Positions 39,994 to 60,400 of a stretch of DNA of 64,000 nt are shown piece by piece. Each line of letters starts with the position of its first letter. The first letter of the stretch is position 1. The notes beneath the pieces were generated by a model, which was given only the letters and a program-made list of their open reading frames with translations, searched no databases and had not been told where the DNA came from. The stretch is from NCBI RefSeq assembly GCF_947497285.1, contig NZ_CANMFT010000001.1, positions 248,001 through 312,000 of the forward strand, given 5' to 3'. The DNA comes from an uncultured Aliiroseovarius sp. (GTDB lineage: Bacteria; Pseudomonadota; Alphaproteobacteria; Rhodobacterales; Rhodobacteraceae). A program made the position numbers and the translations under genes.

Positions 39994-40408
39994 GGCAGGG
40001 CAAGCGCTAAGCTGTGCGACGAGGTGTCGTGCAGCGCACCACCTGTTTCCAGCGGCACAAATGGTTCTTTCGGAATAACTTGGGTCAAATTGAATGTCTC
40101 ATTCGCTATTATCAAAGCCGGTCCGGTCTGCAGTTTCGCGTGCTGGATTCGGCCCGAGTGCGCTCTTTTCCTGTGTTGCCTGACCCACCGATCGCGACAC
40201 CAATAGAGCAAGGTAAACGCGGGCAAGGCCCAGATGTCATTGTTTCCCATTTTGACAGCTCAGGTAAACCAAAAACATGCGAGGAAAGCGATGTGCCTCT
40301 CGGCGATCCACTGATGTCCCGCCAATTTGGCGCTTCGTGACGTCAGAGGCGATCGCGCATGCGCTGCCTTTGCGGTGCCAAACAATAAAGATTTCTTCTG
40401 GATGGGGA
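39994..40408. other. Non-coding stretch before the tRNA remnant
   Basis: Open frames of 60-108 codons exist on both strands but overlap one another and resemble no family I know; none has a convincing ribosome site. I see no RNA gene or terminator here. It may hold the promoter for the rimK-like operon. Confidence 0.4.
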
Positions 40409-40456
40409 TGGAGGCGAGTACCGGAATCGAACCGGTGTACACGGATTTGCAATCCG
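40409..40456 (-). other. Attachment site: 3' remnant of a tRNA-Cys(GCA) gene
   Basis: On the minus strand this reads CGGATTGCAAATCCG (anticodon arm, anticodon GCA), then a perfect T arm (ACCGG-TTCGATT-CCGGT), an acceptor strand ACTCGCC, discriminator T and encoded CCA. Nothing upstream (40457 onward) resembles a D arm or the 5' acceptor strand, and identity breaks at the base opposite position 43, leaving a C-T mismatch. The fragment therefore cannot encode a tRNA. It is the expected left junction of an element integrated into a tRNA-Cys 3' half. Confidence 0.8.
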
Positions 40457-43307: not shown

Positions 43308-43394
43308 ATTATGGTGATCGGCCAGCCTGGGGTTCTTGAGATGAGGACGCAAATCCATTGGCCTCGAATTAAAATACTTTGAAAGCGGATGCTA

Positions 43395-45153: not shown

Positions 45154-46014
45154 ATGCCAAAATGGGAGCGTCAATACACAGCGATTGATCCAATGGATGA
45201 ATTGCTAAGATGTACATGTGGAAAGCCTGATTGTCCGACCGGGAACCTCCGCCCACTGCGGGAGCACATGGGCGCTCTCATCCAAGCGATTTTGTCTTGT
45301 GGCCATGTTGGACTTATCGATGGAGGCCAGGATCCATGGCCTGGAACTCTGTATTCGTTGCACATGGCTGTCAGTATCGAGGACGTTTTTGTCGATCCGG
45401 CATACATTGATGAAAGCAGTTCCGGACTATACTGTGATAGCGCTTGGGAGTTCGATGAGGAGCAGCGTGAGACTTCGTCAAAGTATGTCGCAGCGCTTGC
45501 CATCTTCAATTTTATTTGGATGGCATACGAAGAAGCGATCGGATACTGCCTTGGCGAAAACTTTTCAAAAGATAAGCCAGCCGTCCAATCACGAAAGTTC
45601 CTGAATGGCACGGAAGAGAAACATGAAACAAAAATCGCTTCTTTCAATGCGGTCTATAGAGCCACCGCAAGAATATGCGGCAAACGTAGTGGACTAAAAG
45701 ACGGTATTGACCTTATTCAGACTAAGTACAGGCTTGAAGGTGCGTCGGCAGCGGCAGAGTTGATGCGGCTGTTCCGAAATCATGTAGTGCATGGCGATGA
45801 TAGTACCCCCCTTTCTGGAGGCTCGACAACTGTTGCGCATTTCTATGCTTCAGCAACGCTGTTGTTGATGCTGATCCAGATCCTGATTTTGCATCGAGTC
45901 ACTAATCAATCGGCCAAGATCCCACTTTCACTAGTTTTAGATGACAAAGGGGAGCATTCTGCTGGGTTTGTACTTTTGAATCTCCATCGACCTGAGGATC
46001 GCTGGCTTACCTAG
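45154..46014 (+). CDS. Unknown protein with HEPN-like C-terminal motif
   Basis: This 286-aa protein has an N-terminal CTCGKPDCPTGN cysteine motif (about 20-31), a largely helical middle and LMRLFRNHVVHGDD (about 205-218), which fits the R-N-x-x-x-H signature of HEPN/Apea-like RNase domains. After it come hydrophobic helices (YASATLLLMLIQILILHRV). HEPN proteins in defence islands are often abortive-infection RNases. It ends convergent with the methyltransferase gene, with overlapping stop codons. Assignment to HEPN rests on one motif. Confidence 0.55.
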   Translation: MPKWERQYTAIDPMDELLRCTCGKPDCPTGNLRPLREHMGALIQAILSCGHVGLIDGGQDPWPGTLYSLHMAVSIEDVFVDPAYIDESSSGLYCDSAWEFDEEQRETSSKYVAALAIFNFIWMAYEEAIGYCLGENFSKDKPAVQSRKFLNGTEEKHETKIASFNAVYRATARICGKRSGLKDGIDLIQTKYRLEGASAAAELMRLFRNHVVHGDDSTPLSGGSTTVAHFYASATLLLMLIQILILHRVTNQSAKIPLSLVLDDKGEHSAGFVLLNLHRPEDRWLT

Positions 46015-48038
46015 CTGGGAATTCTCACGCCAGCTTTGAGGAGGGTCTGAGCAAACTCCCTAAAACTTGGTCCCTCATTGCTGAAATTGAGAGTATTCAA
46101 GTCTAGGACTTCCTGATCAAATGCTTTCTGCGCCGCTTGCCGAGGATCAGTCTCTTTCATGTAGCGGGATTTTAGATACAGAAGTCGGACGTCATTGTCT
46201 GCAGAATGGTCGATGATGGAAACGTCGAAGGTGTCGAACTCGACTTTCACCCGGGTCATCAAGCGAGGCAAGAAGGACGTCTCAAAATCGGCATAGGTTA
46301 GCGCAGTCAGCTTACGGCTGGTAATGTGAATTCTCAGCAAAGTTGTTTCGGACAGATCACCCGCTAGCCTTTCAGCGAGAGCGACGAACCCTCGAAGCCT
46401 GACGGACAGTTCTTGGAGCCTATTAGTGGGAAATTGATATCTGCCCTGTTCTAAATGACCGATTCCAGCAGCGGCTGCCGTTTCAGCATCTTCTAGGCGA
46501 AGGTCCTGGTTGCCGATCGAATAGAGGAGCGCTTGTCCAGATTCCTGCGCTCTTTTGTGGCTGCCAAAGAAAGCACGAATGTCGCGCCGTAGTTCAGGAG
46601 GAAATGAGCCATACGATCTTCTTTGTGAGAATGCATGCATTGCGAAGTGAAGGCTTAGATCTTCAGTTCTTGTGGCGACGATTCCTTCAAGTTCCTCGTG
46701 ACCTATTTCTGCAATTGCCTGACTTGCCGCATACTGAAGGCCTTGCTTTGATCGCGAAAGCTTCGTCACAAGGCTCTTGGGAAGTTCTGAGATATCGGGC
46801 TGACGGCCAAAGGCCCTGATCTCAGCAGCAAGGTCTAGGATGGTTGTTTTGTTGAGCTTGTCGTTGGGGTTTTTGGGGGTGCCTTTTTTCGGTGCACTTG
46901 GTTTTGGAACGGAGCGATACTCACGGCCTTTGAAGCCTATTTGACGCCTTAGTAAATATCTTTGCTCTTCCAACTCGTCCCGAAAGACCAAAAATATACC
47001 TTGGCCTACGGCCAAGGGTTCGACATTCAAAATGCTTACGATGAAGTCTCTGAGTTCTGCTTGGGTATAGTACTTTTGGAATGTCTGTCGGGACGTCAAG
47101 TATCCGTCGCGGTAAGGCCGCACGCCACTCAGGTCAGCCTTGCCGTACAACATGACGGATACGGCCAAGCAGAGCTCCGTTAGACTGAAGGCGCGCTTAA
47201 GTGCTTCTGCCCGCTCTTCAGGATCTTCGATTACGTTGAGCACAAATCCAAGATTAGTGATTTGGCTCTTTTTTAGAGTACTGGGATCTCGTCGATAGTG
47301 GGGATCCCAACCTTCGACGGTATAGCCATCAGACTGTAGGGCTCGGATGTCATCACCTTGACCGCATCCATAGTCCAAAACGGTTCTATCGCGACGGATC
47401 AGACCACTTGTAAACAGCAGGTACATTGGCGCTGAGAGCGCAGCTCGCGTGATCGCCGTTTTGTGGCGCTCAACAGTGTTTTTCTCTGGGCCATTCATTT
47501 CATCGGCTGATTTCTTGGAGGACTCTTCTGAGATCAAATCGCTCTGCACGATGTGAGGACCTTCGACGGTCAATCCGGCTTCAGCCAATGTCTTCATCCA
47601 AATCCGCCGCGTTCCCTTGTTTGCCATGTTCTTAAAGAGCCCCTTGCTCTCTAAGGACTGCGTCAGCTTTGCAAAGTCATCTCTTAGCGGATGATCCGGG
47701 GCTAGGAGTAGCTCCTTTCTGTGTAGAATGGGTGGGTTTGCGTCAGAATATTTTCTCAGTTTTGCTCCTTCTTCCGAGAGGTTGACGAGTAGGCTTGCCC
47801 GCAGCTCTGGAAAAGCCACGGCGCTAAAGTCTTGATAGTCCAAAAACGAGAAGGTCTGGTCGTTTTGCCCCGAGATCTTCAACACTGACCATTGGAAATC
47901 TTCCGGAACCCTTTGCAGTGCAAGGCTCAGCTTATCCTTTGCGCTCGTCTGAAGGTGATCGACCGCGCTACGGTGCACGTAGATCGCCTGGCCTACCTTT
48001 TTTCCAACCGCATTTTTGAGAGATTTATTGTTTTGCAA
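46011..48038 (-). CDS. DNA phosphorothioation-associated putative methyltransferase
   Basis: This 675-aa protein has a SAM-binding motif I VLDYGCGQGDD (220-230) inside a methyltransferase-like domain (about 190-350), flanked by an N-terminal domain (about 20-185) and a long C-terminal helical part. It matches the family known only as putative methyltransferases beside dnd/ssp genes. It starts with TTG, with GAGGGG 6 nt upstream, and follows the desulfurase gene on the same strand by 72 nt, so the two are probably co-transcribed. Its role in phosphorothioation is unknown. Confidence 0.78.
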   Translation of the reverse strand: MQNNKSLKNAVGKKVGQAIYVHRSAVDHLQTSAKDKLSLALQRVPEDFQWSVLKISGQNDQTFSFLDYQDFSAVAFPELRASLLVNLSEEGAKLRKYSDANPPILHRKELLLAPDHPLRDDFAKLTQSLESKGLFKNMANKGTRRIWMKTLAEAGLTVEGPHIVQSDLISEESSKKSADEMNGPEKNTVERHKTAITRAALSAPMYLLFTSGLIRRDRTVLDYGCGQGDDIRALQSDGYTVEGWDPHYRRDPSTLKKSQITNLGFVLNVIEDPEERAEALKRAFSLTELCLAVSVMLYGKADLSGVRPYRDGYLTSRQTFQKYYTQAELRDFIVSILNVEPLAVGQGIFLVFRDELEEQRYLLRRQIGFKGREYRSVPKPSAPKKGTPKNPNDKLNKTTILDLAAEIRAFGRQPDISELPKSLVTKLSRSKQGLQYAASQAIAEIGHEELEGIVATRTEDLSLHFAMHAFSQRRSYGSFPPELRRDIRAFFGSHKRAQESGQALLYSIGNQDLRLEDAETAAAAGIGHLEQGRYQFPTNRLQELSVRLRGFVALAERLAGDLSETTLLRIHITSRKLTALTYADFETSFLPRLMTRVKVEFDTFDVSIIDHSADNDVRLLYLKSRYMKETDPRQAAQKAFDQEVLDLNTLNFSNEGPSFREFAQTLLKAGVRIPS

Positions 48039-48110
48039 GTTTCACCCCTCGGGTTTGGATCTTTCTAAAGGCTCTTTTGAAACATCCTACCTGACCGAGG
48101 AGCGATCGAT

Positions 48111-49253
48111 CTAGAGTACTGCTATAATGGCCTCGGCGGCTTCTAGAACTTCATCCGATGTATTGGTGTGCCCAAAACTAAAGCGTATGGAGGCTTGCGC
48201 TTCATCCGATGTGAGCCCGATTGCACGGAGGACGTAGCTTGGTTCCGAAATTCCCGAAGAGCAGGCCGAACCTGTAGAAGCTGACACGATCGGTTGTAAT
48301 CGTTGGAGCATTTCTCCCGCATCGCGTCCTTCGAACCTTAGATTCGCATTGCCAGGATGGCGGGAGCAGAGCTTATCTCCATTCAATCCAATATGGTCGC
48401 GGTTCGATTGCAGTTTGTCTACGAAAAGATCTCGTAGACCTGCGACCCGCGCTCTCAAAGCAGATCCGGCTTCAGAGGAATGGAACTCCGCCGCTGAGCC
48501 AAGACCAACACACAAGGGAAGGGGCAGTGTGCCGGACCGAAGCCCACCCTCTTGCCCACCGCCGTGAAACAGAGGTTCAATCCGGTCCTTCAGCTCTCGG
48601 CTCACATAGAGCGCCCCAACACCCATTGGCCCACCAAATTTATGCCCCGACAGACTAACCATGTCAGCCATATCTGCATATTCTTGGAGGTTGACTGCGC
48701 TTGGTGCCTGCGCGAAGTCGGAGTGGAGGATTGCTCCCATATCACGGCAAAGTGCTGATATTGAAGCAAGATCTTGGATGGTCCCGATCTCATTGTTGAC
48801 CAATGCCACGCTTACCAAAAGAACATCTTCACTTAGCATGTCTCGCAGTTTGTCGAGGTCGATGTGGCCTTTCCCGTTGACCGGAATCTCTCGAACCGCA
48901 CATCCTTTTGTCTGAGCTGCATAGGCGGCACTTTCCAATATGCACTTATGCTCTGTCGCTGAAACAAGGATTGTCGTGCGCTGACTTTGCCGTTGCTCCG
49001 GAGTGCTCAGACCCTTGATGGCAAGATTGTTCGCCTCTGTAGCGCCGGACGTAAAAATTATCTCATCCGCATCGACTCCAAGGAGGTTGGCCACTTTGGC
49101 CCTCGAAGTCTCGGTAGCCTTATTCGCGGACCACCCTGTTGAATGTTCGGAGGAGTGCGGGTTGCCATGGAACTCAGTCCAAAACGGCTGCATTGCGGCC
49201 CGAACTGTTGGCAGCATCGGAGTGCTTGCTTGATGATCAAGGTATATGGTCAA
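48111..49253 (-). CDS. sspA: Cysteine desulfurase of the phosphorothioation system (SspA/DndA)
   Basis: This 380-aa class V PLP enzyme has EHKCILES (His102), SLSGHKFGGPMG (Schiff-base K205) and the sulfur-carrying cysteine in STGSACSSGIS (C331). It mobilises sulfur from cysteine for DNA backbone modification. It begins with TTG (AGGGAA upstream), which agrees with the family N-terminus IYLDHQASTP. Divergent from sspB, and followed by the putative methyltransferase gene. A housekeeping IscS is less likely because of the neighbours and the absence of isc genes. Confidence 0.85.
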   Translation of the reverse strand: MTIYLDHQASTPMLPTVRAAMQPFWTEFHGNPHSSEHSTGWSANKATETSRAKVANLLGVDADEIIFTSGATEANNLAIKGLSTPEQRQSQRTTILVSATEHKCILESAAYAAQTKGCAVREIPVNGKGHIDLDKLRDMLSEDVLLVSVALVNNEIGTIQDLASISALCRDMGAILHSDFAQAPSAVNLQEYADMADMVSLSGHKFGGPMGVGALYVSRELKDRIEPLFHGGGQEGGLRSGTLPLPLCVGLGSAAEFHSSEAGSALRARVAGLRDLFVDKLQSNRDHIGLNGDKLCSRHPGNANLRFEGRDAGEMLQRLQPIVSASTGSACSSGISEPSYVLRAIGLTSDEAQASIRFSFGHTNTSDEVLEAAEAIIAVL

Positions 49254-49324
49254 AGGGTTTCCCTGCCAAATCGAAGGTTATCTGTAGACCAAGTTTGATC
49301 CTGGGGTCAAGCACCAGGTCGTCG

Positions 49325-49354
49325 TTGACCATCCCCTCGGAAGATCGCTATAAC
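49325..49354 (+). promoter_or_regulatory. Promoter of the ssp plus-strand operon
   Basis: TTGACC (49325-49330), 18-nt spacer, TATAAC (49349-49354), ending about 25 nt before the sspB ATG. It lies in the 126-nt divergent gap with sspA. Confidence 0.5.
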
Positions 49355-49379
49355 AACCACTAAGCGGGGTAGCAGATTT

Positions 49380-50321
49380 ATGAAAAAGCAAACAACATTT
49401 ACACAGGATTACAAGCCGCAGTTCTCCGGCCACGAGACCTTTCCGTTGCGCTACGGATGGTTGGAAAAGGCTTTCGAAGCTGTTGATGCTAGTGGCCTGA
49501 ATAACAACAAGATATTTTCAGAGAGCGAGGCGATTGCGCATTTCGGCGTGGGCAAGAACATGGTGGCGGCAATTCGATTTTGGGCACAGGTCGCAGGTAT
49601 TCTCACAACGGATGGGAAGGATGTAAGAACGACCGAATTTGGTCAGCAGTTACTTGGCCCCAATGGGTGCGATCCATACCTTGAAAGCGCTTCGTCTCTT
49701 TGGAAAATCCACTGGGATATTGCCTCCAATCCTAAGCATACAGCCACCTACTGGTTGTTCAATATTTTCAATGAACCCAACTTTGATCGCGATACTGTTC
49801 TGCGAAGACTGATGGAATTTATTGGTCAGCGTGGTTGGAAATTGCCAACAGAGAAAACGTTAACAAGCGATATAAGCGTCTTATTGGCTAACTACGTGCC
49901 TAGTGTCCCAAAGCGGGGCCCTAGCGAAGAGGCGTTCAATTCTCCGCTGACCGAGCTGGGATTAATACGGCGGCGCTCAAATGGAAAATTCAGTATGAAC
50001 TTAGGGCGAAAGCCAGGCCTGTCTAACGGCGTGTTTCTCTATGCGGTGTGCGATTTTTGGGAGCGAACTTCTTCTGCTAACACGCTTGGCGTCCAATCAA
50101 TGCTACTAGAGCCCGGGTCTCCTGGAAGGGTTTTCGTACTTGAAGAGTGGGAACTGATTGATCGGTTGGCCGATGTCGCCGACATGTCCGACGGTTTGAT
50201 TTCTTGGTCTGAGACGGCTGGATTGAAACAACTTCTTAGACAAGAGGAGTTTCCCCAAGGTTTTGCAGAAAACCTGTGGTCCTCCGACATTTCTGCGTTG
50301 AGAGGTTCATATGCCGCTTAA
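49380..50321 (+). CDS. sspB: DUF4007-family protein, SspB-like
   Basis: This 313-aa protein begins with the DUF4007 hallmark FSGHETFPLRYGWLEKAF (about 15-32), followed by HFGVGKNMVAAIRFW, a helix-turn-helix-like segment. DUF4007 proteins in phosphorothioation loci correspond to SspB, described as the DNA-nicking partner in single-strand phosphorothioation. First gene of the plus-strand operon; its 3' end overlaps the next gene. Assignment is by family and by the sspBCD gene order. Confidence 0.8.
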   Translation: MKKQTTFTQDYKPQFSGHETFPLRYGWLEKAFEAVDASGLNNNKIFSESEAIAHFGVGKNMVAAIRFWAQVAGILTTDGKDVRTTEFGQQLLGPNGCDPYLESASSLWKIHWDIASNPKHTATYWLFNIFNEPNFDRDTVLRRLMEFIGQRGWKLPTEKTLTSDISVLLANYVPSVPKRGPSEEAFNSPLTELGLIRRRSNGKFSMNLGRKPGLSNGVFLYAVCDFWERTSSANTLGVQSMLLEPGSPGRVFVLEEWELIDRLADVADMSDGLISWSETAGLKQLLRQEEFPQGFAENLWSSDISALRGSYAA

Positions 50322-53300
50322 CGAAATTGTCTCGGTGAATGGTCGCTTTCTGCGATCTGTTCGAATTGATCAAGATGACCGTAATGAAGCCCTAGAGGGG
50401 TTTGTTTTTTCATCATCAGTAAGGGAGACCCTTAGTAATTTCTCACGCCAACAATTTGAGAGCGGGCAAGGCGCCTTCACTTGGACTGGCCCGTACGGAA
50501 GCGGGAAGTCGAGCCTCGCACTCGCCCTCTCCGCGTTGTTGAGTGGTAGTAAGCAAGAACGCGCAACGGCTGCGAGCAGGACTGATCCGGAGTTTGCAAA
50601 GGAACTATGGAAGTTACTCCCTCCGAAGCGAGATGGCTGGAAATGTGTGTCGGTCGTTGGGCGCAGCATGGAACCCTTCCAGCTGATCGGTGATTGTATC
50701 AAGGATGCAGGATTGGCGGCACGCCAAAGGAAGTTTGATACGCCTGAAAAAGTAATTGAGTACTTGCAGTTTTTGGCCGCCGACGACCGTGAGCATTCTG
50801 GAGGTTTAGTCCTCTTTTTGGATGAAATGGGGAAGCTACTTGAGCACGCGGCATCCTCAACAGGAGATGCATATTTCTTCCAGCTGCTTGGTGAAGCGGC
50901 GTCGAGAAGCGGTGGCCGCCTTATCGTTGTGGGTATCCTTCATCAATCCTTCCAAGAATATGCGAGCCGCTTGGCACGCGACATCAAAGATGAGTGGGGA
51001 AAGATCCAGGGTCGCTTCATCGACATTCCCGTCAATGTATCTGGCGATGAGCAGATTGAATTGGTGAGCAAGGCGATTATCGCTTCAGAGCAGCCGGATA
51101 GCGCTAGACGGAACGCAGAGGCAGCCACGGAACTACTTGCCGATGTTCGACGTGGCGCGTCCGTAGTTTCGAAAGAGTTGCTTACTAGCGCTTGGCCACT
51201 CAACCCGCTTGTTACACTGGTGCTAGGGCCTGCATCGCGTCGGAGCTATGGGCAAAACCAGCGTAGCATCTTCAGTTTCCTGGGCTCTTCCGAGCTGTTC
51301 GGCTTTCAGGACTACCTTGAGAAGGCGAGCAAAGAAGATCCGAAGGACTACGGATTGGCTGATTTTTGGGATTATCTAGATTTCAATCTGCAAGCTGCAA
51401 TCGCCGTGTCTTTGGACAGCCATCACTTTGCAAATGCAAGGGATGCAATTGCGCGGTGGGAAGCGAAAGATGGCGGTGAGATCGGTGTGCAGCTGCTAAA
51501 GTCGCTGGCCATTTTGGAACTGACACAAAAGCAGACCGGAGTAGGTGCGACGCTGGGCGCACTTAGCCTGGCAATAAATCAAACAAGTGCTGCGGTAGAG
51601 GGGCTCTTGTCAGAACTTGAGGCGGCGTCGATTGTTGTTTTTCGAAAGTTCAGGGGCACTTACTCTCTCTTTGACGGGAGCGACTTTGACATTGAAGTGG
51701 CGTTGGATGAGGCATTGAGAGAAAGATCAGACTTCGATCTCAGCTCAATCTCAAACGCTTTATCTTCACCCAATATCGTCGCAAAGCGGCACTACCGTGA
51801 AACTGGTGCTCTGCGCTGGTGCGAACTCAAGGTACTGCTCGAAAGCCAAGTCGAGAACTATGTTACTAGCTTTACACCTACAAATGGATGCTTTGGCGCA
51901 TTCATCATTTCACTGGACGATGCGACGCCAAGCATTGTTGAGGATTTTGGTGAGTATGGGTGGGGGGCCGACTTTGCGGTTGTGAGGTCTGAAAAATCGA
52001 AGAACCTTGTGGCGCTCGCACGAGAGCACTCCGCTTTGAAGGATATCTTGGCATCGAACCCCGAGATTCATCGAGACAAAATCGCGCGCAGAGAGCTTAC
52101 CGATCGTATCGAGGCGATTGGGGGTAGGATTGAGCATGAAGTCTGGCAATTGATCGCAAGCGCAGAATGGGAAACTGGAATTGATGATCTCCCGATTTCC
52201 GCGCGCCGGAACCTCACAGTTTTAGCCTCAGAAATGGCAGACCGTCGGTTTTCGCAGTCGCCCAAACTAAACAACGAACTGCTGAACCGAACCAAGCCCT
52301 CGGCATCGGCCAATTCAGCGCTCAAGCTGTTACTGCATGCTGCCGTCCTTAAAGAAGGTATTCCGGGGCTTGGGTTTAAGAAGTTCCCAGCGGAAAAAGC
52401 TCTGTTCGTATCGCTCGTCGAGGCCAACGAGCTATACGTGCAGGAGGGCGACAGTTGGCAGTTTGTGCCGCCTTCAGGAGAGGACCCCGCAAATCTGTTG
52501 CCTATTTGGAAAGCAACGAAAGACTTCTTGAAGAAGCGGGGTAACCGCAACGTACAACTTACCGATGTTTATGACCTATGGCGGGCACCTCCCTTTGGGT
52601 TGAAGGACGGTTTGATGCCATTCCTTGCTGTGCTGTTCATGCTAGCTGAACGCCGGAACCTGTCACACTATCGGGAAGGTATTTTTTTATCGACTATTTC
52701 GGATGTCGACGTGGACTATGTTCTGAGAGCGCCGCAAATGGTCCAGTTGCGCTGGATCGAAATGAACCGAACGACCAAGAGGCTGCTTACTGAGCTGGCA
52801 AACGCGGTCGGTGAAGTTGTGGACAAACCAATCTCAACTCTAAGTCCGCTAGAAGTTGGACGCGCGCTCATCGCAGCTTACGAAACTTCAGCACCTTGGG
52901 TTCAACGAACCGCACGCCTTCCTGAGCACGCAAAAAAAGTCAGAGCGCTCTTCAAGCGTTCTAATGACCCACAAAAGTTCGCATTTGATGACATTCCTGG
53001 GCTTTACGGACAGGACATCGACATTCTCACAGATCAAGGAATCTCTGAGATCGCTCAAAACATCAAAGAAGGGCTCATCGAAATCCGCGCAGCTTACCCT
53101 GCGATGCTCACAAGAATGCGCGAACACATTCTGAACGAGTTACAAGTTCACGGGCGCACTGAGAAAGCGTACCGAGAACTGAATGAGCGCGCGAAGAATA
53201 TCCGAGATGTTGCAGGTGACTTGCGGCTTCGATCTTTCATCACCCAGCTCACAAGCTTCGGAGATGACCTACAGTCGATGGAGGCACTCGCGGGGTTGGG

Positions 53301-53661
53301 CATCAACAAGCCTGCTAAAGCTTGGATCGATAGCGACATTGACCGGGCAATTGTTCAACTCACCTTGCTTGCGCAACAGTTCAACCAGCACGAGTCTGTC
53401 GCGCGCGTGGCCGGGCGGAAGGACAAGCGCTCCGCAATGGCCTTGATTGTCAGCGTTGATGATCGGCCCACGCCTGTGATGGAGGAATTTGATGTCTTGG
53501 ACTCCGACGATGAGCAGGTGAACAACCTGAGTAGAAAGATTGAAGAAGTGTTGCAGGAAGCTGCGGAAGGCACCGGTAGAAACGTAATCCTAGCTGCATT
53601 GGCAAAAGTCGGGGCTGCGAGGATCAAACAATCGAACGCAAGTGAGGAAGTAGATGGTTGA
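50311..53661 (+). CDS. sspC: Large P-loop ATPase, SspC-like
   Basis: This 1116-aa protein has Walker A TGPYGSGKSS (59-68) and Walker B LVLFLDE (166-172) near the N-terminus, then a long helical region with winged-helix-like stretches and a charged C-terminus. This size and layout fit SspC, the ATPase of SspABCD. It overlaps sspB by 11 nt and sspD by 8 nt, which implies coupled translation. Beyond the ATPase domain I cannot name domains with confidence. Confidence 0.78.
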   Translation: MPLNEIVSVNGRFLRSVRIDQDDRNEALEGFVFSSSVRETLSNFSRQQFESGQGAFTWTGPYGSGKSSLALALSALLSGSKQERATAASRTDPEFAKELWKLLPPKRDGWKCVSVVGRSMEPFQLIGDCIKDAGLAARQRKFDTPEKVIEYLQFLAADDREHSGGLVLFLDEMGKLLEHAASSTGDAYFFQLLGEAASRSGGRLIVVGILHQSFQEYASRLARDIKDEWGKIQGRFIDIPVNVSGDEQIELVSKAIIASEQPDSARRNAEAATELLADVRRGASVVSKELLTSAWPLNPLVTLVLGPASRRSYGQNQRSIFSFLGSSELFGFQDYLEKASKEDPKDYGLADFWDYLDFNLQAAIAVSLDSHHFANARDAIARWEAKDGGEIGVQLLKSLAILELTQKQTGVGATLGALSLAINQTSAAVEGLLSELEAASIVVFRKFRGTYSLFDGSDFDIEVALDEALRERSDFDLSSISNALSSPNIVAKRHYRETGALRWCELKVLLESQVENYVTSFTPTNGCFGAFIISLDDATPSIVEDFGEYGWGADFAVVRSEKSKNLVALAREHSALKDILASNPEIHRDKIARRELTDRIEAIGGRIEHEVWQLIASAEWETGIDDLPISARRNLTVLASEMADRRFSQSPKLNNELLNRTKPSASANSALKLLLHAAVLKEGIPGLGFKKFPAEKALFVSLVEANELYVQEGDSWQFVPPSGEDPANLLPIWKATKDFLKKRGNRNVQLTDVYDLWRAPPFGLKDGLMPFLAVLFMLAERRNLSHYREGIFLSTISDVDVDYVLRAPQMVQLRWIEMNRTTKRLLTELANAVGEVVDKPISTLSPLEVGRALIAAYETSAPWVQRTARLPEHAKKVRALFKRSNDPQKFAFDDIPGLYGQDIDILTDQGISEIAQNIKEGLIEIRAAYPAMLTRMREHILNELQVHGRTEKAYRELNERAKNIRDVAGDLRLRSFITQLTSFGDDLQSMEALAGLGINKPAKAWIDSDIDRAIVQLTLLAQQFNQHESVARVAGRKDKRSAMALIVSVDDRPTPVMEEFDVLDSDDEQVNNLSRKIEEVLQEAAEGTGRNVILAALAKVGAARIKQSNASEEVDG

Positions 53662-54493
53662 CAAAGTTAAACATGTTCTAGGTTTGTCAGGGGGCAAAGA
53701 TAGTTCAGCCCTCGCGATTTACATGAGCCAGGCTCACCCCGAACTTGATATTGAGTATTTCTTCACTGATACGGGCGAAGAGCTGGATGAGGTTTATGAG
53801 TATTTAGCGATGCTCGAGGGCTTTCTTGGCAAGAAGATCCGGTACCTGGATCCGGGGCGAGATTTTAAGTTTTACCTAGCCCAATATAATCAATTCCTCC
53901 CGTCTGCCCAGACGCGTTGGTGTACGAAAGACCTAAAGATCAAGCCCTTTGAGAAGTGGGTGAAATCTGAATTCACCGAACACGGATATACAGTCTATAG
54001 TTATGTGGCGATCCGGGCTGACGAAGATTTTCGTCAAGGTTTGAACTCGAAAAATGGAAATTTGATTACCAAGCTGCCTTTCAAAGATGATGGGATCGAC
54101 AAGGCCGGCGTTTTCGAAATTCTTGAGAACTCGGGTCTTGGCCTTCCCTCATACTACGATTGGCGTTCCAGGAGTGGCTGCACGTTTTGTTTCTTTCAGC
54201 AAAAAATCGAGTGGGTTGGCCTAAAGGAGCGTCACCCTGAAGCCTTCGAGAGGGCTAAGCAGATGGAAAAAACTTCTCTCGACCACGGATCGCCGTTTTC
54301 ATGGAGTGAAGGGGAAACACTGCTTGAACTGGAAAAGCCTGAACGCATTGCTCAAATCCGCGCAGATCATGAAAAACGTGTCGAAAGAGCTAAGGCGAAG
54401 AGGAAGGTTGATCCTCTACGACCGGAACAAGGCGCAGTTGATCTAGATGAGATTTATGGCCAGCAAAAGGTGTGTTTGGCCTGCCATAAATGA
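53654..54493 (+). CDS. sspD: PAPS-reductase-like ATP pyrophosphatase, SspD/DndC-like
   Basis: This 279-aa protein has the PP-loop SGGKDSSA (12-19), FFTDTGEEL and five cysteines: C90 (RWCTKD), C176 and C179 (SGCTFC), C274 and C277 (VCLACHK). Four could hold an Fe-S cluster, as in DndC. It probably activates the DNA backbone with ATP for sulfur insertion. It is much shorter than DndC (about 500 aa), which favours SspD. It overlaps sspC by 8 nt. Confidence 0.82.
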   Translation: MVDKVKHVLGLSGGKDSSALAIYMSQAHPELDIEYFFTDTGEELDEVYEYLAMLEGFLGKKIRYLDPGRDFKFYLAQYNQFLPSAQTRWCTKDLKIKPFEKWVKSEFTEHGYTVYSYVAIRADEDFRQGLNSKNGNLITKLPFKDDGIDKAGVFEILENSGLGLPSYYDWRSRSGCTFCFFQQKIEWVGLKERHPEAFERAKQMEKTSLDHGSPFSWSEGETLLELEKPERIAQIRADHEKRVERAKAKRKVDPLRPEQGAVDLDEIYGQQKVCLACHK

Positions 54494-54524
54494 TCTGATG
54501 TAGGAATTTGTTTAGGATGCAGCA

Positions 54525-54764
54525 ATGAAGGTCTTCGGAAGCGGGCTCGCAGATATACACCGTCAGATTGTTTCGTATGAACCCAAAATTGGGTTTTGTT
54601 TCCTCAACAGATCACTGAGCTCGCATTTAGGGGTCGTCGATGAAAAAGCATTTCCCTTCAGGGGCTTTACCAAACAGCGGAATCTGTCAAAGTATGTTGA
54701 AAGCGTACACCCTTGGGGCGAGCTGCTGGCGAGCAAAAAATCGAGAGAGTGGAAAACAAGATGA
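54525..54764 (+). CDS. Small unrecognised gene between sspD and sspF
   Basis: This 79-aa protein is one I do not recognise. Evidence that it is real: AGGA lies 8 nt before its ATG, it fills the only gap in an otherwise packed operon, and its TGA overlaps the sspF ATG as ATGA. It is basic at the C-terminus (ASKKSREWKTR) with no membrane span. It may be an extra subunit, a translational lead-in for sspF, or a remnant. Confidence 0.55.
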   Translation: MKVFGSGLADIHRQIVSYEPKIGFCFLNRSLSSHLGVVDEKAFPFRGFTKQRNLSKYVESVHPWGELLASKKSREWKTR

Positions 54765-56425
54765 GTTCGAGCGCCGTAGTTGACGCCCTCGCAAGCATAG
54801 GTATCGCACGACTGGCGGCTTTTTGGGGTGAGAACCGGTTAGAAGGGCTTTCAGAGCTCGGGGTTAGTACTCGACCTCGCGCGGTAGCTGAAGCCATGCT
54901 GTCTGAGAGTGGGCTGGCTATCTTTAAGAAGCGAGACCTCAGAAACGCTGTACTAGAAGTGTTTTCGCCACAAATTATCCGAGACAAACTCGGCTCAGGG
55001 CCAGATGGTTGCCCTGTAACTATTCCACCGAATTTTACTTGGGGAAGAAATGAGGCAACGACCAATTTTCTAAAGCTGATGGACCTGAACATCGACGAAG
55101 CTTTCCCAAACGATTTGATGTCTGGCCCAGAGCCGCATCTGCAAACACACATTGAAAAACCCCTATTTGATTATCAAAACAGCATTAGAAAACAGCTTGT
55201 TAGTTTTTCGTTTTTGGAGGCAGGTGCCCACGCCAATGCAGCAAGCAGAAGAATCGTCGCACATATGCCGACAGGCTCGGGGAAAACACGAACAGCCATG
55301 GAATTCATTTCAGATTTCCTTAGGTTTAGCTGTTCACGTGAAAATCCCGTTGTGGTTTGGCTTGCTCATAGCGAAGAGCTCTGCGATCAGGCGGTTCAAA
55401 CGTTCCTTAGCATTTGGACAAAACTGGGAACTGAGAATGCAAATGTTTACTCAATGTGGGGGGGCAGGAAGCCAGACAACATTGATCTGAGCAAGCCCTG
55501 TTTTATAGTTACTAGCTTTCAGAGTTGCTACTCTAGCATTCACTCAAACAAAAACGCTGATTTTGACCGATTTGCAGAAATTAGGCGCGAATGCAGTCTC
55601 CTGATTGTCGATGAGGCGCACATGTCGATGGCGCCGACTTACAAAAAAGCAATAGAGTTTCTCTGTAACTCGAGCACTACTCTGATCGGCTTGACGGCTA
55701 CGCCTGGTAGGCATCACGTTGGGGGTGATGTAGCTCAAACCAAGGCTCTATCGGATTTTTATGGCAACAAAAAACTCACGATAGACCAGCGATTGACCGG
55801 CGAGCGAAACTCAATTGAGTATCTTCAGGATCGTGGGATTTTGTCTTCTGTTGAGCGTATGCGTCTCAACACCAGCGCTACTGTTAATCTTGACGCCGAC
55901 GCAGTCAGGTTAATTTCCGATCTTTTAGACATCTCACCCAAAGTGCTGGCGGAGTTAGGCAACAACGCCCAGAGGACATTGGAAGTAGTCGCTGCAGTCG
56001 AAAAGCTTGCACTTGTTGATAAGAAACAGACCATCGTGTTTTGCCCATCGAAGCAGAATGCATCTGATATGGCATTGGTCTTAAGGGAAAGAGGGTGCGC
56101 GGCAAGAGCGGTAACCGGCGAAACTCCACCAAGCGATCGACGCGAGGCGATTGAAGATTTCAAAAACGGAAGTGTCAGGGTTCTCACAAATTTTGGTGTT
56201 TTGACAACCGGATTTGACGCGCCAAAGACAGAGGCCGTTGTGATTGCGCGTCCGACAACGTCGGTTGTGCTTTATTCACAAATGGTGGGACGGGGCCTTA
56301 GAGGCAATTCAGTTGGTGGGACGCCTAGCTGCACTGTGGTGGATGTGGTTGATAATATTGTAAATTTACCCAACGTGCCGCAAGCTTTTACGTATTTTGA
56401 CGAACATTTCGGGGAAGCAAAATGA
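54761..56425 (+). CDS. sspF: SF2 DEAD/DEAH-box helicase, SspF-like
   Basis: This 554-aa protein has an N-terminal extension (1-130), motif I MPTGSGKT (169-176), motif II DEAH (284-287), motif III TATPGR (312-317), and C-terminal helicase motifs VLTTGFDAP and QMVGRGLRG. I start at the ATG with GTGGAA upstream rather than the TTG at 54713. It overlaps sspG by 4 nt. Helicase, GHKL ATPase and PLD nuclease after sspBCD match the SspFGH effector module, which acts against unmodified DNA; the letters are assigned here by order. Confidence 0.78.
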   Translation: MSSSAVVDALASIGIARLAAFWGENRLEGLSELGVSTRPRAVAEAMLSESGLAIFKKRDLRNAVLEVFSPQIIRDKLGSGPDGCPVTIPPNFTWGRNEATTNFLKLMDLNIDEAFPNDLMSGPEPHLQTHIEKPLFDYQNSIRKQLVSFSFLEAGAHANAASRRIVAHMPTGSGKTRTAMEFISDFLRFSCSRENPVVVWLAHSEELCDQAVQTFLSIWTKLGTENANVYSMWGGRKPDNIDLSKPCFIVTSFQSCYSSIHSNKNADFDRFAEIRRECSLLIVDEAHMSMAPTYKKAIEFLCNSSTTLIGLTATPGRHHVGGDVAQTKALSDFYGNKKLTIDQRLTGERNSIEYLQDRGILSSVERMRLNTSATVNLDADAVRLISDLLDISPKVLAELGNNAQRTLEVVAAVEKLALVDKKQTIVFCPSKQNASDMALVLRERGCAARAVTGETPPSDRREAIEDFKNGSVRVLTNFGVLTTGFDAPKTEAVVIARPTTSVVLYSQMVGRGLRGNSVGGTPSCTVVDVVDNIVNLPNVPQAFTYFDEHFGEAK

Positions 56426-58188
56426 ACAAACAAGACAAGCCAGTGCAGATTGTTGATGCGTACTTGGCGCTGAATGCATTGCGCCAAGTCGGCTATCGAA
56501 ACACAGCTACTGCGGTAGCTGAATTGGTTGATAACTCGATCGAGGCCGAGGCAAAAAAGATAACCATAGTTACGCTGTCAGCCAGAGAACCTGTAGCAAA
56601 GCGTACGGTCTACCGAGTTCAAAAAATAGCGGTTTTGGATGATGGGCACGGGATGACACCGGATGAGTTGGGACGCTGTCTATCACTAGGTTGGGGCACT
56701 CGACTAGATACCCGAGATGGTCTCGGACGTTTTGGCTTTGGACTTAAAGGTTCGTCTCTTTCACAGGCGGAGCTTGTTGAGGTTTATGCTTGGCAAAATG
56801 GGTCGGTCCACAAGACGTATCTTGATCTACCGGAAGTCAAGGAAGGCAGACAGCAGTATCTTAAAAGCGTTGAAGAGACGGACCTTCCCAAAGAGATAGT
56901 TGAAGCGGTTGGAGGAAAGATCGGTAGCAGTGGCACGCTGGTCTTATGGTCCAAGCTAGATGGAGTGGATTTCAAGCGCCCGTCGACGCTCTTTTCTCGG
57001 ATGCAGGAAGAGCTCTGCCGCATTTATCGGCACTTCCTGGATGACAATGATGATTATGGCAAGAAACGTGATGTGAGCTTGGTTGACTTCGATCTAGACA
57101 ATAACAAAGTCGAAGCGTCGCACGAGTTGAAGCCCAATGATCCTTTGTACCTTTTGGAGCCGTCAAGCTGCCCTGACAGCGATGGAAAGGCTACGAACGT
57201 CGAGTTTGAGAAACCATATGCCATACCAATAGAGTATGAGCAGGGAAAATTTTCGGACATTGAAATTCGCCTTAGTATAGCAAAGCCAGAGACCCAAAAA
57301 ATGGGTGGTAATTCAAATCTCGGCAAGCACTACGCACGCAATACTGGTATCTCGTTTGTTCGAGCTGGCCGTGAGATAGACTTTGGTTCCTTTGGTTTTC
57401 TAGACAGTGATACCAGGCAGAGGTGGTGGGGCGTAGAAGTACGTTTTAAGCCGGTTTTGGATGAGTTGTTTGGTGTTACTAACAACAAGCAGCATATTCG
57501 AGGCTTCAAGAAACTAGACCCGAAACACGACGTCGAGCAGATTGAAGCCTTGAACGAAGCTGCGGAGGACCCGGAGAATTCTGGCCACTACAAATCCTCA
57601 TTGCACCTTGAGCTCAATCGAAATCTCACAGTTAAGATCAATGCAATGTTGGACGTTATTAAAACACGAAAGGAAGGGAGTTCTGCGGACCCATCTAAAG
57701 CCAAGCCTGACCCCGTTTCTGAAAAGGTCAATAAGGATGTGGCGGAGGATCACACTGAAACATCCTCAGACAAAGAGGCTGAGACCAAGTCGGAACAGGA
57801 GAAGCTGGCAGAACGTACAAAATATGTTCTGGAAACTCGCCCAGAGCTTTCTGAAGAAGATGCACAAGCGTTCGCCAAAGCAACGATTGACTACAAGGTT
57901 GACCTGAACAAGGGCAGTTGGCCTGGGACAATGTTCTTGGACCTGCAGTTCGTAGCAAATGCAGCGGTTGGAGTTATCAACACCCGTTCCCCATATTACG
58001 AAAAATTGTGGCAGCATGTCGAAGACTCTGGCGATGATCGAGCGCTGAGTGCTCTTGAAGTGTACACGATGGCTTATGTGCGTACTGAAGACGAGTTCAG
58101 GAAGACCCTAGATGGCGAAACCTTTGAGAAATTCCGTGACCGGTGGGGCTACTGGGTATCCAAACTCTTAGAGAATGTTGACGAGTAG
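56422..58188 (+). CDS. sspG: GHKL (HATPase) ATP-binding protein, SspG-like
   Basis: This 588-aa protein has the Bergerat ATP fold near the N-terminus: N-box AELVDNSIEA (33-42), G1 LDDGHGM (72-78), G2 GRFGFGLKGSS (102-112). A charged, probably coiled linker (about 410-470) precedes a C-terminal domain. It resembles MORC/Hsp90-type ATPases found in anti-phage loci. Coupled to sspF by a 4-nt overlap. Probably a nucleotide-driven clamp or switch in the effector complex; that is inference. Confidence 0.75.
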   Translation: MNKQDKPVQIVDAYLALNALRQVGYRNTATAVAELVDNSIEAEAKKITIVTLSAREPVAKRTVYRVQKIAVLDDGHGMTPDELGRCLSLGWGTRLDTRDGLGRFGFGLKGSSLSQAELVEVYAWQNGSVHKTYLDLPEVKEGRQQYLKSVEETDLPKEIVEAVGGKIGSSGTLVLWSKLDGVDFKRPSTLFSRMQEELCRIYRHFLDDNDDYGKKRDVSLVDFDLDNNKVEASHELKPNDPLYLLEPSSCPDSDGKATNVEFEKPYAIPIEYEQGKFSDIEIRLSIAKPETQKMGGNSNLGKHYARNTGISFVRAGREIDFGSFGFLDSDTRQRWWGVEVRFKPVLDELFGVTNNKQHIRGFKKLDPKHDVEQIEALNEAAEDPENSGHYKSSLHLELNRNLTVKINAMLDVIKTRKEGSSADPSKAKPDPVSEKVNKDVAEDHTETSSDKEAETKSEQEKLAERTKYVLETRPELSEEDAQAFAKATIDYKVDLNKGSWPGTMFLDLQFVANAAVGVINTRSPYYEKLWQHVEDSGDDRALSALEVYTMAYVRTEDEFRKTLDGETFEKFRDRWGYWVSKLLENVDE

Positions 58189-58189
58189 A

Positions 58190-59101
58190 ATGCTTCTCTT
58201 AGAGACGGGTGCTTTTCGAGAGGAACTTGCGTTTGCCTTGTCATCGGCAGAGCAAGAAGTCATCGTTATGAGTGCATTTATTAAGCTCGATGCGCTTAAG
58301 TGGCTTATTGAAAACAGTAAAACGAGCAACCTTACGGTCGTAGCCCGTTGGCAGCCGTCAGATCTAGCAGCTGGAGCCTCCGACCTGGAGTGCTTTTACC
58401 TCTGTGATGAGGCTAATATTCCATTTGGGATTTCTCAGAACCTGCATGGAAAAGTCTATATCGTAGATTCTAAGATCTTCATTGGTAGCGCCAATCTAAC
58501 ATCAAAGGGGATGTCCCTTTCGCATTATGTAAACGACGAGTTCGGAACTGGATTCGAATACGGTCAGACCGAGAAGATCAAAGTCCGGGACTATCTCGCT
58601 TCCGTAAACTGGCTTGATGTCAAAACTGTCGAATTGATGGCTGACTTCTTGAGAGGCTTTGGCGGAAACACGGATGTGCATTCGAATGAGTGGCCCCAAG
58701 AAATTTCTGAAAAACTTGGTTCTCAACCCCTCGGTGTTTGGTTTCACGATCTTCCAATGTGCAGCCCAAATCAGTTGCTAGCGCAGACGGCTGCAGCAAC
58801 GGCAATTGAGCACGATCTAGATTGCTTTCTAGGCAAGAAAGGCGCTGCCGAAGGCGAGCTGTTGAAAGGCTTCATGTCGTCGCAAATTTGCTTTTGGCTT
58901 GAAGTGCAATTGCAGGAATACGGTGAGCTATCCTTTGGGAAGGTCACCTCGCTGTTTCACGACCAGATACTTGATGACCCTATGCCATATCGAAAGAACA
59001 TCAAGGAAGGTGTGGCAAACCTGTTCGATTGGGCTAGCAGGTGCAACACAAAGTTTGAAGTGGCCAGGCCGCAGCACAGACAGGTAATCCGTGCGGTGTA
59101 G
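58190..59101 (+). CDS. sspH: Phospholipase-D-like nuclease, SspH-like
   Basis: This 303-aa protein has a single HKD motif, LHGKVYIVDSKIFIGSANLT (H86, K88, D93; Ser and Asn in GSAN). One motif implies a dimer for catalysis, as in NgoFVII/BfiI-type enzymes. The rest is helical. ATG chosen; a TTG at 58175 inside sspG is the other option. It is the last gene of the operon, followed by a GC-rich hairpin. Probably the DNA-cutting part of the effector module. Confidence 0.75.
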   Translation: MLLLETGAFREELAFALSSAEQEVIVMSAFIKLDALKWLIENSKTSNLTVVARWQPSDLAAGASDLECFYLCDEANIPFGISQNLHGKVYIVDSKIFIGSANLTSKGMSLSHYVNDEFGTGFEYGQTEKIKVRDYLASVNWLDVKTVELMADFLRGFGGNTDVHSNEWPQEISEKLGSQPLGVWFHDLPMCSPNQLLAQTAAATAIEHDLDCFLGKKGAAEGELLKGFMSSQICFWLEVQLQEYGELSFGKVTSLFHDQILDDPMPYRKNIKEGVANLFDWASRCNTKFEVARPQHRQVIRAV

Positions 59102-59107
59102 TAATGA

Positions 59108-59521: not shown

Positions 59522-60400
59522 ATGGCACCGAAGTTTGATGTTTATGCCCATGTCACCGGCACCATTATTGCAGAGATCGAGGCGGGCACGCCGCCTTGGC
59601 GCAAGCCGTGGACCGGAAGCGCGTCCGGCGTTGCCTTGCCGACCCGACACAATGGCGAGGAGTATCGCGGGATTAATATCCTGATGCTCTGGGTCATGGC
59701 CGCCAAGAATGGCTATGTTTCGAGCCGCTGGATGACCTACAAGCAGGCGCAAGAGCTGGGTGGCCAAGTCCGCAAAGGCGAAACGTCGTCGACCGTGGTC
59801 AAATACGGGACGTTCACCCGAGAGAACGAGCAGGGCATTGAGGAAGAACTGCCTTATGCGCGCGCCTATCGCGTGTTCAACGCGGATCAGATCGAAGGCT
59901 TGCCGGAGGATTACTACATCCGCCCCGAGGCCCCGCGCGATCTTGGCACAGCGGAAGATCCGGAGTTTGAGGCGTTTTTCAGCCGGACAGGGGCGGAGAT
60001 CCTCACCAGCGACGACCCGCGTGCCTATTACAGCCCCTCCAAAGATCACATCCACATGCCGCCGATTGCCACGTTTCACGATGCGGCAGGCTACTATGGG
60101 ACGTTGGCCCATGAGCTTATCCATTGGACCGGTAGCGAAAAGCGGCTTGAGCGGATCAAGAAATTTGCGAACCGCGAAGCCTATGCCTTTGAAGAGCTGG
60201 TGGCGGAAATCGGTGCTTGTTTCCTTGGTGCTCAGATTGGCGTCGCGCCGGAATTCGACCAAAGCGCCGCCTATGTTGAAGGGTGGTTGAAAGCGCTCAA
60301 GGAGGACAAACGGGCGATCTTTCGCGCGGCGTCCGAGGCGCAAAAGGCAGCCGATTTTGTCCTAGCAGCCGCAGGTCAATCGAAAGCGGCCGCAGCATGA
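59522..60400 (+). CDS. ardC: ArdC-family antirestriction protein
   Basis: This 292-aa protein has an ArdC N-terminal ssDNA-binding domain (about 5-125; PPWRKPWTG, GINILMLW) and a zincin-like C-terminal domain with HELIH (197-201) and a downstream Glu in EELVAEIGA. ArdC proteins protect incoming mobile DNA from host restriction during conjugation. The ribosome site GAGGAGG is strong. The gene sits between a defence cargo and the mobilisation genes, consistent with an early-entry role. Confidence 0.88.
   Translation: MAPKFDVYAHVTGTIIAEIEAGTPPWRKPWTGSASGVALPTRHNGEEYRGINILMLWVMAAKNGYVSSRWMTYKQAQELGGQVRKGETSSTVVKYGTFTRENEQGIEEELPYARAYRVFNADQIEGLPEDYYIRPEAPRDLGTAEDPEFEAFFSRTGAEILTSDDPRAYYSPSKDHIHMPPIATFHDAAGYYGTLAHELIHWTGSEKRLERIKKFANREAYAFEELVAEIGACFLGAQIGVAPEFDQSAAYVEGWLKALKEDKRAIFRAASEAQKAADFVLAAAGQSKAAAA

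What the first reader, a model, noticed from the sequence alone, without database searches (positions are those of the whole stretch)
46011..59101. Complete SspABCD-SspFGH-type phosphorothioate defence locus on a mobile island
Seen: desulfurase with catalytic Cys and Lys, DUF4007 protein, large ATPase, short PAPS-reductase-like protein with Fe-S-type cysteines, SF2 helicase, GHKL ATPase and single-HKD PLD protein, all overlapping except for one gap. Known: sspBCD plus sspFGH cassettes modify single-stranded sites and attack unmodified DNA. No SspE-like (DUF262/DUF1524) or DndBDE gene is seen. The locus appears intact and carries extra parts.
Basis: partly seen in the sequence, partly recalled or inferred. 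Interest (0 to 1): 0.8.

Follow-up and report, generated by a model that had tools for sequence, protein, structure and literature searches.

The report
Sulfur-marked DNA defence, new effector trio
A mobile element carries genes that put sulfur marks on one strand of the cell's own DNA, next to three genes (a DNA motor, a clamp-like ATPase and a DNA cutter) that are not the published partner of these marking genes but a different, widespread and apparently undescribed one.

Summary
The genes are there and intact. A TIGR04096 putative methyltransferase and SspA, SspB, SspC, SspD match their families. The 'SspFGH' reading fails: published SspF/G/H are a Walker-A protein, an unknown and an FtsK-like protein (PMC8092258). 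PADLOC's SspF/G/H models hit an Agrobacterium locus at E 2.8e-237, 5.9e-219 and 0, but none of the three window proteins. That locus carries both SspFGH and relatives of the window's helicase and GHKL genes. The trio (SF2 helicase, MORC-like GHKL ATPase, single-HKD nuclease) is a separate effector module. Of 80 genome loci found with the GHKL family alone, 70 have SspB/C/D in the fetched flank, 78 the helicase. In samples of 385 and 398 genomes, all 5 and all 6 with a full-length GHKL carry SspC on the same contig. The nuclease slot is exchangeable; one type goes with a motif-dead helicase and often with true SspFGH. The 13.1-kb cassette is cargo of an integrative element at tRNA-Cys with 49-bp repeats. 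Likely mechanism: ATP-dependent restriction of DNA lacking the phosphorothioate mark; inferred, untested. No paper found in ten library searches describes it.

The parts
46005..59102 (.). Whole cassette: one block shared at 93.7% DNA identity with a congeneric genome (G594), with different DNA around it
46011..48038 (-). Phosphorothioation-associated putative methyltransferase (TIGR04096), 675 aa; role unknown
   Evidence: 477.7 bits, cut-off 150; a relative lies in 13 of the 80 genome loci
48111..49253 (-). SspA/DndA-type cysteine desulfurase, 380 aa
   Evidence: PADLOC SspA 8.7e-120; NCBIfam DndA 343.5 bits, below its cut-off of 480; K205, C331
49380..50321 (+). SspB (DUF4007), 313 aa
   Evidence: PADLOC SspB 5.8e-98; family profile to solved SspB 6juf/6lb9 1.3e-68
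50311..53661 (+). SspC ATPase, 1116 aa
   Evidence: PADLOC SspC E 0, 1127 bits
53654..54493 (+). SspD, PAPS-reductase-like, 279 aa
   Evidence: PADLOC SspD 5.5e-128; conserved cysteines
54761..56425 (+). Effector gene 1: SF2 helicase with intact Walker A, DEAH and motif VI
   Evidence: Pfam ResIII/Helicase_C; nearest solved chain RadD 1.3e-41; motifs; start by alignment
56422..58188 (+). Effector gene 2: MORC-like GHKL ATPase, 588 aa
   Evidence: Pfam HATPase_c_3; MORC2 9.9e-9 over residues 29-111; model pLDDT 88.3; Foldseek MORC2/3/4, SMCHD1, MutL, Hsp90
58175..59101 (+). Effector gene 3: single-HKD (PLD-type) putative nuclease, 308 aa
   Evidence: Pfam PLDc; H91, K93, S105, N107 invariant in 63 of 63; model pLDDT 93.2; Foldseek NucT, Nuc, SauUSI
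40408..40456 (.). Left 49-bp direct repeat of the integrative element; the right copy lies outside the window (96300-96348 in window numbering), in tRNA-Cys
   Evidence: integrase beside the right copy

Best explanation
The cassette is a phosphorothioate (PT) modification-restriction system. SspA takes sulfur from cysteine, and SspD with the SspB nickase and SspC ATPase places PT on one strand of host DNA (established for the families; here shown only by homology). The three downstream genes are the restriction part, a module distinct from SspFGH, SspE, DndFGH and PbeABCD. I propose that the SF2 helicase moves along duplex DNA, that the MORC-like GHKL ATPase closes on DNA as an ATP-driven dimer and relays translocation and PT status, and that the HKD protein, as a dimer, cuts. 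PT on self DNA holds the complex off, so unmarked phage or plasmid DNA is damaged. Shown: gene content, conservation, linkage, motifs, predicted folds, mobility. Inferred: complex formation, cutting, and that PT inhibits rather than activates.
For: SspA-D at profile level. Linkage: 70 of 80 GHKL loci have SspB/C/D, 78 the helicase; all 5 full-length GHKL genomes of 385 and all 6 of 398 are among the 9 and 11 SspC genomes, same contig (hypergeometric 8e-8 and 1.2e-7 without the window genome and its congener). Exchangeable nuclease slot. Intact motifs and purifying selection. On plasmid pSC52_2 a 91%-identical MT-SspABCD sits near a divergent version of the same trio. One 896-aa frame holds GHKL and HKD in L066. 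For PT as protection: among the ten of 80 loci without SspB/C/D, the four without any PT gene and not on short contigs have no recognised nuclease, as if the cutter were not kept without the mark; weak.
Against: No PT, cutting or phage protection is shown. Distances across modules correlate only at 0.29-0.58, against 0.84-0.94 within SspB/C/D. Half of the 18 other SspC loci sampled lack the trio. 12 of 63 HKD proteins lack the full pattern. Chloroflexi loci have helicase and GHKL without SspBCD or a recognised nuclease.
Confidence: 0.6

Rival explanations
1. PT-sensing version: the same trio, but, like SspE, idle until PT on DNA activates its ATPases; it then damages invading DNA. Loss of PT would be harmless to the cell.
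For: SspE works this way with the same SspABCD marks (PMC8092258), and GmrSD (SspE-like) proteins sit beside the helicase in place of a nuclease in L060 and L062, which shows that PT-activated and other effectors mix.
Against: Helicase-plus-nuclease make-up resembles restriction of unmarked DNA; published SspFGH is toxic without PT (PMC8092258). Neither is a test of this trio.
Confidence: 0.25
2. The trio is an independent defence system that merely shares defence islands with SspBCD.
For: Effector and modification distances agree only partly; in part of the loci the trio is on the opposite strand from SspBCD; four Chloroflexi loci lack SspBCD.
Against: In two genome samples all full-length GHKL hits (5 and 6) lie within about 8 kb of SspC; 49 of 54 loci with both flanks of at least 7.5 kb have SspB/C/D.
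Confidence: 0.08
3. One reading: the three genes are diverged SspF, SspG and SspH.
For: Same place in the cassette and same number of genes; both occur with SspBCD.
Against: No match to 14 SspF/G/H models (6, 4 and 4 models seen to hit true SspFGH); both sets occur side by side in L013 and in the flanks of 7 of 80 loci.
Confidence: 0.02
4. A split PbeABCD: the helicase and HKD genes are a divided PbeA.
For: PbeA is an HKD-SF2 helicase fusion (PMC10853773) and the helicase matches PbeA models over its helicase part (1.1e-26).
Against: No PbeC (ABC ATPase) match among the window proteins; true PbeA with SspBCD occurs separately in L099, L101, L110 at E 1e-185 or better.
Confidence: 0.02

Closest known systems
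SspABCD-SspFGH (Vibrio anguillarum FF-93; PMC8092258)
   Same: SspABCD modification module followed by a three-gene effector; proposed action on DNA without PT
   Different: All three effector proteins: SspF/G/H models do not match
SspABCD-SspE
   Same: SspABCD
   Different: No GmrSD/SspE protein in the host genome
DndCDEA-PbeABCD (PMC6459918)
   Same: SF2 helicase and HKD activities linked to PT genes
   Different: HKD and helicase are separate genes, a GHKL ATPase is present, no PbeC ABC ATPase
MORC/paraMORC restriction-modification neighbourhoods (PMC2292703)
   Same: GHKL-S5 ATPase with an SF2 helicase and a nuclease, HKD in a few
   Different: Those described in the parts read go with DNA methylases; the paper's text holds no 'phosphorothio' or 'PAPS'
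SauUSI (type IV, HKD + SF2 helicase in one chain; 7clg)
   Same: HKD part and helicase are among the nearest solved structures
   Different: One chain that reads modified DNA (recalled); here separate genes plus a GHKL ATPase
MZA and DISARM
   Same: MzaB matches the GHKL N-terminus, DrmC the HKD protein weakly
   Different: MzaB 72 bits against a cut-off of 850; no DrmA or DrmB match

Membership tests
SspABCD modification module | SspA, SspB, SspC and SspD homologues together | tested here: met
   PADLOC 8.7e-120, 5.8e-98, 0, 5.5e-128; SspB profile to 6juf
SspABCD modification module | Single-strand phosphorothioate in host DNA | not testable with these tools
   Needs LC-MS/MS
SspFGH | SspF, SspG, SspH homologues | tested here: not met
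   No match at E 0.001; positive control L013 matches all three
SspE | DUF262/GmrSD protein with the ssp genes | tested here: not met
   No PF03235 match in the own genome; the model rings in 8 of 14 control genomes
PbeABCD | HKD-helicase fusion PbeA and ABC ATPase PbeC | tested here: not met
   PbeA models match only the helicase part, no PbeC match; positive controls L099 and L110
DISARM | DrmA helicase and DrmB (DUF1998) | tested here: not met
   Only weak DrmC matches
MZA | MzaB at the curated cut-off | tested here: not met
   72 bits, cut-off 850
MORC-like GHKL ATPases | GHKL ATP-site residues with an S5-type domain and lysine | tested here: met
   E34, D37, N38, D73, G77, K356 invariant in 71 relatives; MORC2 by sequence and fold
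MORC-like GHKL ATPases | MORC-specific S5 motif that separates MORC from paraMORC (PMC2292703) | not tested
   Motif read in the paper, not scored here
HKD/PLD nucleases | HxK(x)nD...GSxN motif and HKD fold | tested here: met
   Window protein has it, once; 51 of 63 relatives fit the full pattern; Foldseek NucT 3.3e-6
Integrative conjugative element | Integrase, att repeats at a tRNA gene, relaxase and conjugation genes | tested here: met
   completeness of the transfer genes not examined

The most novel reading that the evidence does not exclude
A whole class of PT restriction systems built on a MORC-like DNA clamp with an exchangeable nuclease (HKD, HNH or a third type), in two sub-types: one powered by its own SF2 helicase, the other with a motif-dead helicase that works together with, and borrows the DNA motor of, SspFGH's FtsK-like SspH. 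It would be the commonest partner of SspBCD in the samples seen here, and a bacterial counterpart of the eukaryotic MORC clamps that act on DNA by epigenetic signals.
Probability: 0.35. Interest if true: 0.78.

Novelty: new variant of a known kind. Interest (0 to 1): 0.63.

Why it matters
The SspFGH paper counted 2,678 sspBCD loci, 2,211 of them without sspFGH or sspE, and asked whether unknown restriction partners exist (PMC8092258). Here 9 of the 18 sampled SspC loci other than the window's carry this trio (8 of 17 without the congener), so it may account for a good part of those orphans. It puts a MORC-like ATPase into a DNA-backbone-modification defence, and the question of whether PT protects or activates can be settled by a simple genetic test in laboratory E. 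coli.

Tried and rejected
SspFGH membership: rejected at profile level. SspE: no GmrSD in the own genome. PbeABCD, DISARM, MZA: see the membership rows. A 79-aa ORF (54525-54764) in the SspD-helicase gap was considered as a ninth gene and rejected: 22% identity, 3 stops and dN/dS about 1 in the congener. Pfam on the third, non-HKD type of nuclease-slot protein (ALT3; 2 proteins given) gave nothing at E 0.1; PADLOC gave only a weak N-terminal 'Effector, Endonuclease' match (1.7e-10 and 7.3e-10), so calling it a nuclease is an inference. A search with one integrase sequence found none near; the Pfam integrase model did. VIA-align was not available. Viral contigs: 20 GHKL relatives; of the best 8 examined, L120, L121 and L122 have SspB/C/D with helicase, GHKL and HKD, L119 helicase and GHKL at a contig end, and four no Ssp gene; whether these contigs are truly viral was not checked.
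Full report
WHAT IS THERE. Eight ORFs at 46011-59101 are intact. The 675-aa minus-strand protein is the TIGR04096 phosphorothioation-associated putative methyltransferase (477.7 bits, cut-off 150). The other minus-strand gene is an SspA/DndA-type desulfurase (PADLOC SspA 8.7e-120; below NCBIfam's DndA cut-off). SspB, SspC and SspD match PADLOC models at 5.8e-98, E 0 (1127 bits) and 5.5e-128, and the SspB family profile matches the solved SspB 6juf/6lb9 at 1.3e-68. Downstream, on the same strand, lie an SF2 helicase (ATG 54761 is the better start), a GHKL ATPase and a single-HKD protein. G+C is 0.47-0.54 across the cassette, against mostly 0.55-0.62 in the window before about 43 kb.

IT IS NOT SspFGH. 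The paper that named SspFGH (PMC8092258; I read parts 1-3 of 5) describes SspF as having a Walker A motif, SspG as without homology, and SspH as FtsK/SpoIIIE-like at its C-terminus. PADLOC holds SspF, SspG and SspH models: on an Agrobacterium plasmid (L013) the best score 2.8e-237, 5.9e-219 and 0. The three window proteins match none of them at E 0.001. L013 carries both true SspFGH and relatives of the window's helicase and GHKL genes, next to SspABCD, so these are separate gene sets.

THE TRIO IS TIED TO SspBCD. The GHKL protein has relatives in 54 plasmid records; I read 11 of them. SspB, SspC, SspD, helicase, GHKL and HKD genes lie together in Pannonibacter, Trichormus, Hymenobacter, Mesorhizobium and Roseobacter; Treponema has the set with no strong SspD, and Cyanobacterium HL-69 has SspD and the trio in a stretch that does not reach SspB and SspC. 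Agrobacterium and Aminobacter have SspBCD, helicase and GHKL but a different third gene. The two most distant read, L011 and L012, have no Ssp gene in the stretch. A scan of bacterial genomes with the GHKL alignment alone gave 316 relatives, the best 80 kept. With profiles made from the loci, 70 of the 80 have at least one of SspB/C/D in the fetched flank, 68 have SspC, 55 all three, and 78 the helicase; of 54 with at least 7.5 kb on both sides, 49 have SspB/C/D. The ten without: two on 4.5-kb contigs (L020, L026), one at a contig end (L082), two beside true SspFGH (L063, L071), one beside SspA (L066), and four Chloroflexi-type MAG loci (L058, L061, L091, L092) with helicase and GHKL but no recognised nuclease, two of them with under 3 kb on one side. 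In the two annotated further the neighbours are copper (L061, L092) and rhamnose-type metabolic genes (L061). The seeds came from plasmid relatives, nearly all Ssp-linked, and the scan keeps near relatives, so these fractions describe this GHKL subfamily only.

GENOME SAMPLES. Among 385 genomes of the host's class, SspC is in 9. The GHKL model hits 13 at E 1e-20: five full-length (at least 596 bits), the other eight at most 131.5 bits. All five full-length hits are in SspC genomes, on the same contig. Among 398 of the phylum, SspC is in 11 and GHKL in 23: six full-length (at least 477 bits), the other 17 at most 128.6; all six are in SspC genomes, same contig. The window genome is in both samples and its congener G594 in the second; without them the hypergeometric probabilities are 8e-8 and 1.2e-7. 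The other partial GHKL hits are not SspC-linked. Of the 18 SspC loci other than the window's, nine carry the trio (one of them the congener), three (L111, L113, L114) SspFGH, three a PbeA protein (L099, L101, L110), with PbeC in L099 and L110, one (L100) a type IV restriction-enzyme-like gene, one (L112) nothing recognised, and one contig (L102) is too short to tell. The SspC profile was built from trio-linked loci, which may favour such loci.

ONE SLOT, SEVERAL NUCLEASES. In the 80 loci the best-hit count for the third component is HKD 47, ALT3 12, HNH 9, HKD plus HNH 1, none 11. HNH was confirmed with Pfam HNH_4 in L067. Of the eleven, L060 and L062 have a GmrSD (SspE-like) protein nearby and L087 a DndB. 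In L066, counted as 'none' because each frame was given one label, GHKL and HKD are one 896-aa frame, a hint of direct contact from a single MAG. True SspFGH appears in the flank of 7 loci, all of ALT3 type (7 of 12, against 0 of 68). Among 86 helicases of sufficient length, the Walker A, DEAH and motif VI patterns are all missing in 12 of 12 from ALT3 loci, while 70 of the 74 others have all three and 4 lack one; 14 ALT3 proteins were found, so two of their helicases were not scored. These loci are related to one another, so the counts are not independent events.

MOTIFS, FOLDS, SELECTION. GHKL ATP-site residues and K356 are invariant in 71 relatives; a stricter pattern check missed one motif in 5 of 71. 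HKD H91, K93, S105 and N107 are invariant in 63 of 63, and 51 of 63 fit the full pattern. AlphaFold models have pLDDT 93.2 and 88.3. The HKD protein is nearest to NucT and Nuc and to the HKD part of SauUSI. The GHKL protein is nearest to Hsp90, MORC2/3/4, SMCHD1 and MutL, with moderate TM-scores; MORC2 is its best match by sequence among solved chains, over about 80 residues (9.9e-9). The helicase family is nearest to RadD and SauUSI. Against the congener dN/dS is 0.04-0.20, highest for SspA (0.20) and HKD (0.19).

MODULES AND MOBILITY. In the congener the cassette is one 13.1-kb block of 93.7% identity, 46005-59102, while the DNA on both sides differs or is displaced. On plasmid pSC52_2 the block MT-SspABCD is 91.3% identical and stops at 54501; beyond insertion sequences lies a divergent, inverted GHKL, helicase and HKD set (240, 412 and 109 bits). 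Over 64 loci, SspB/C/D distances correlate at 0.84-0.94, helicase with GHKL at 0.69, and across modules at 0.29-0.58: a modification and an effector module that usually travel together but exchange partners. The carrier is an integrative element: exact 49-bp repeats at 40408-40456 and 96300-96348 (window numbering), the right one in tRNA-Cys, an integrase beside it, and relaxase, VirD4-type, TrbL and TrbI genes between.

HOW IT MOST LIKELY WORKS. By established knowledge of the families, SspABCD marks one strand with PT. I infer that the trio is an ATP-dependent restriction complex: helicase as motor, MORC-like ATPase as DNA clamp and relay, HKD dimer as cutter, held off marked DNA (0.6). The alternative, PT as the activating signal as for SspE, is not excluded (0.25). 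Nothing here shows PT, cutting or protection.

NOVELTY. Ten searches of the held library, pairing Ssp or phosphorothioate terms with helicase, GHKL, MORC, HKD, phospholipase, DUF4007 or PAPS reductase, showed no paper that by title, abstract start or the passages seen describes this module; 'SspBCD' with 'GHKL ATPase' gave 0 papers. I saw passages only of PMC6459918, PMC10853773 and PMC12839542, parts 1-2 of 4 and passages of PMC2292703, parts 1-3 of 5 of PMC8092258, and listings or abstract starts of the rest. Preprints and most subscription journals are not held and PADLOC is of 2023, so a description elsewhere is possible. The GHKL-helicase-nuclease theme itself was described in 2008 for restriction-modification systems (PMC2292703). 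I therefore rate it a new variant of a known kind.

Noticed in passing
window 40408-40456 and 96300-96348 (window numbering; right copy outside the window): 49-bp exact repeats bounding an integrative element of about 56 kb at tRNA-Cys, with HipA (42087-43307) and an ArdC-type anti-restriction protein (59522-60400) beside the cassette.
   Followed up: partly
L099, L101, L110: SspBCD loci with PbeA (and PbeC in L099 and L110), a partner reported with Dnd genes in the passages read.
   Followed up: partly
L003/L013, L030, L035, L037, L047, L063, L071, L085: True SspFGH stands beside a helicase-GHKL-ALT3 set; in ALT3-type loci the scored helicases have lost their Walker A, DEAH and motif VI patterns.
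   Followed up: partly
L058, L061, L091, L092: Chloroflexi-type MAG loci with helicase and GHKL but no Ssp gene and no recognised nuclease in the fetched stretch.
   Followed up: partly
L067, L050, L051, L052, L048, L034, L080, L029, L046, L074: A related HNH protein precedes the helicase or GHKL gene in ten loci, nearly all cyanobacterial.
   Followed up: partly
L004, L010, L075, L087, L099, L104: DndB-like genes in or near SspBCD loci, which have no place in the published Ssp scheme as far as read.
   Followed up: no
window 54525-54764: A 79-aa ORF ending on the helicase start; not conserved in the congener, so probably not a gene.
   Followed up: yes
L112:2706-7226: A 1507-aa protein with weak N-terminal SspC matches beside a true SspBCD locus with no recognised effector.
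   Followed up: no
window 45154-46014 and 43389-44468: Two ORFs between HipA and the cassette with no family above cut-off.
   Followed up: no
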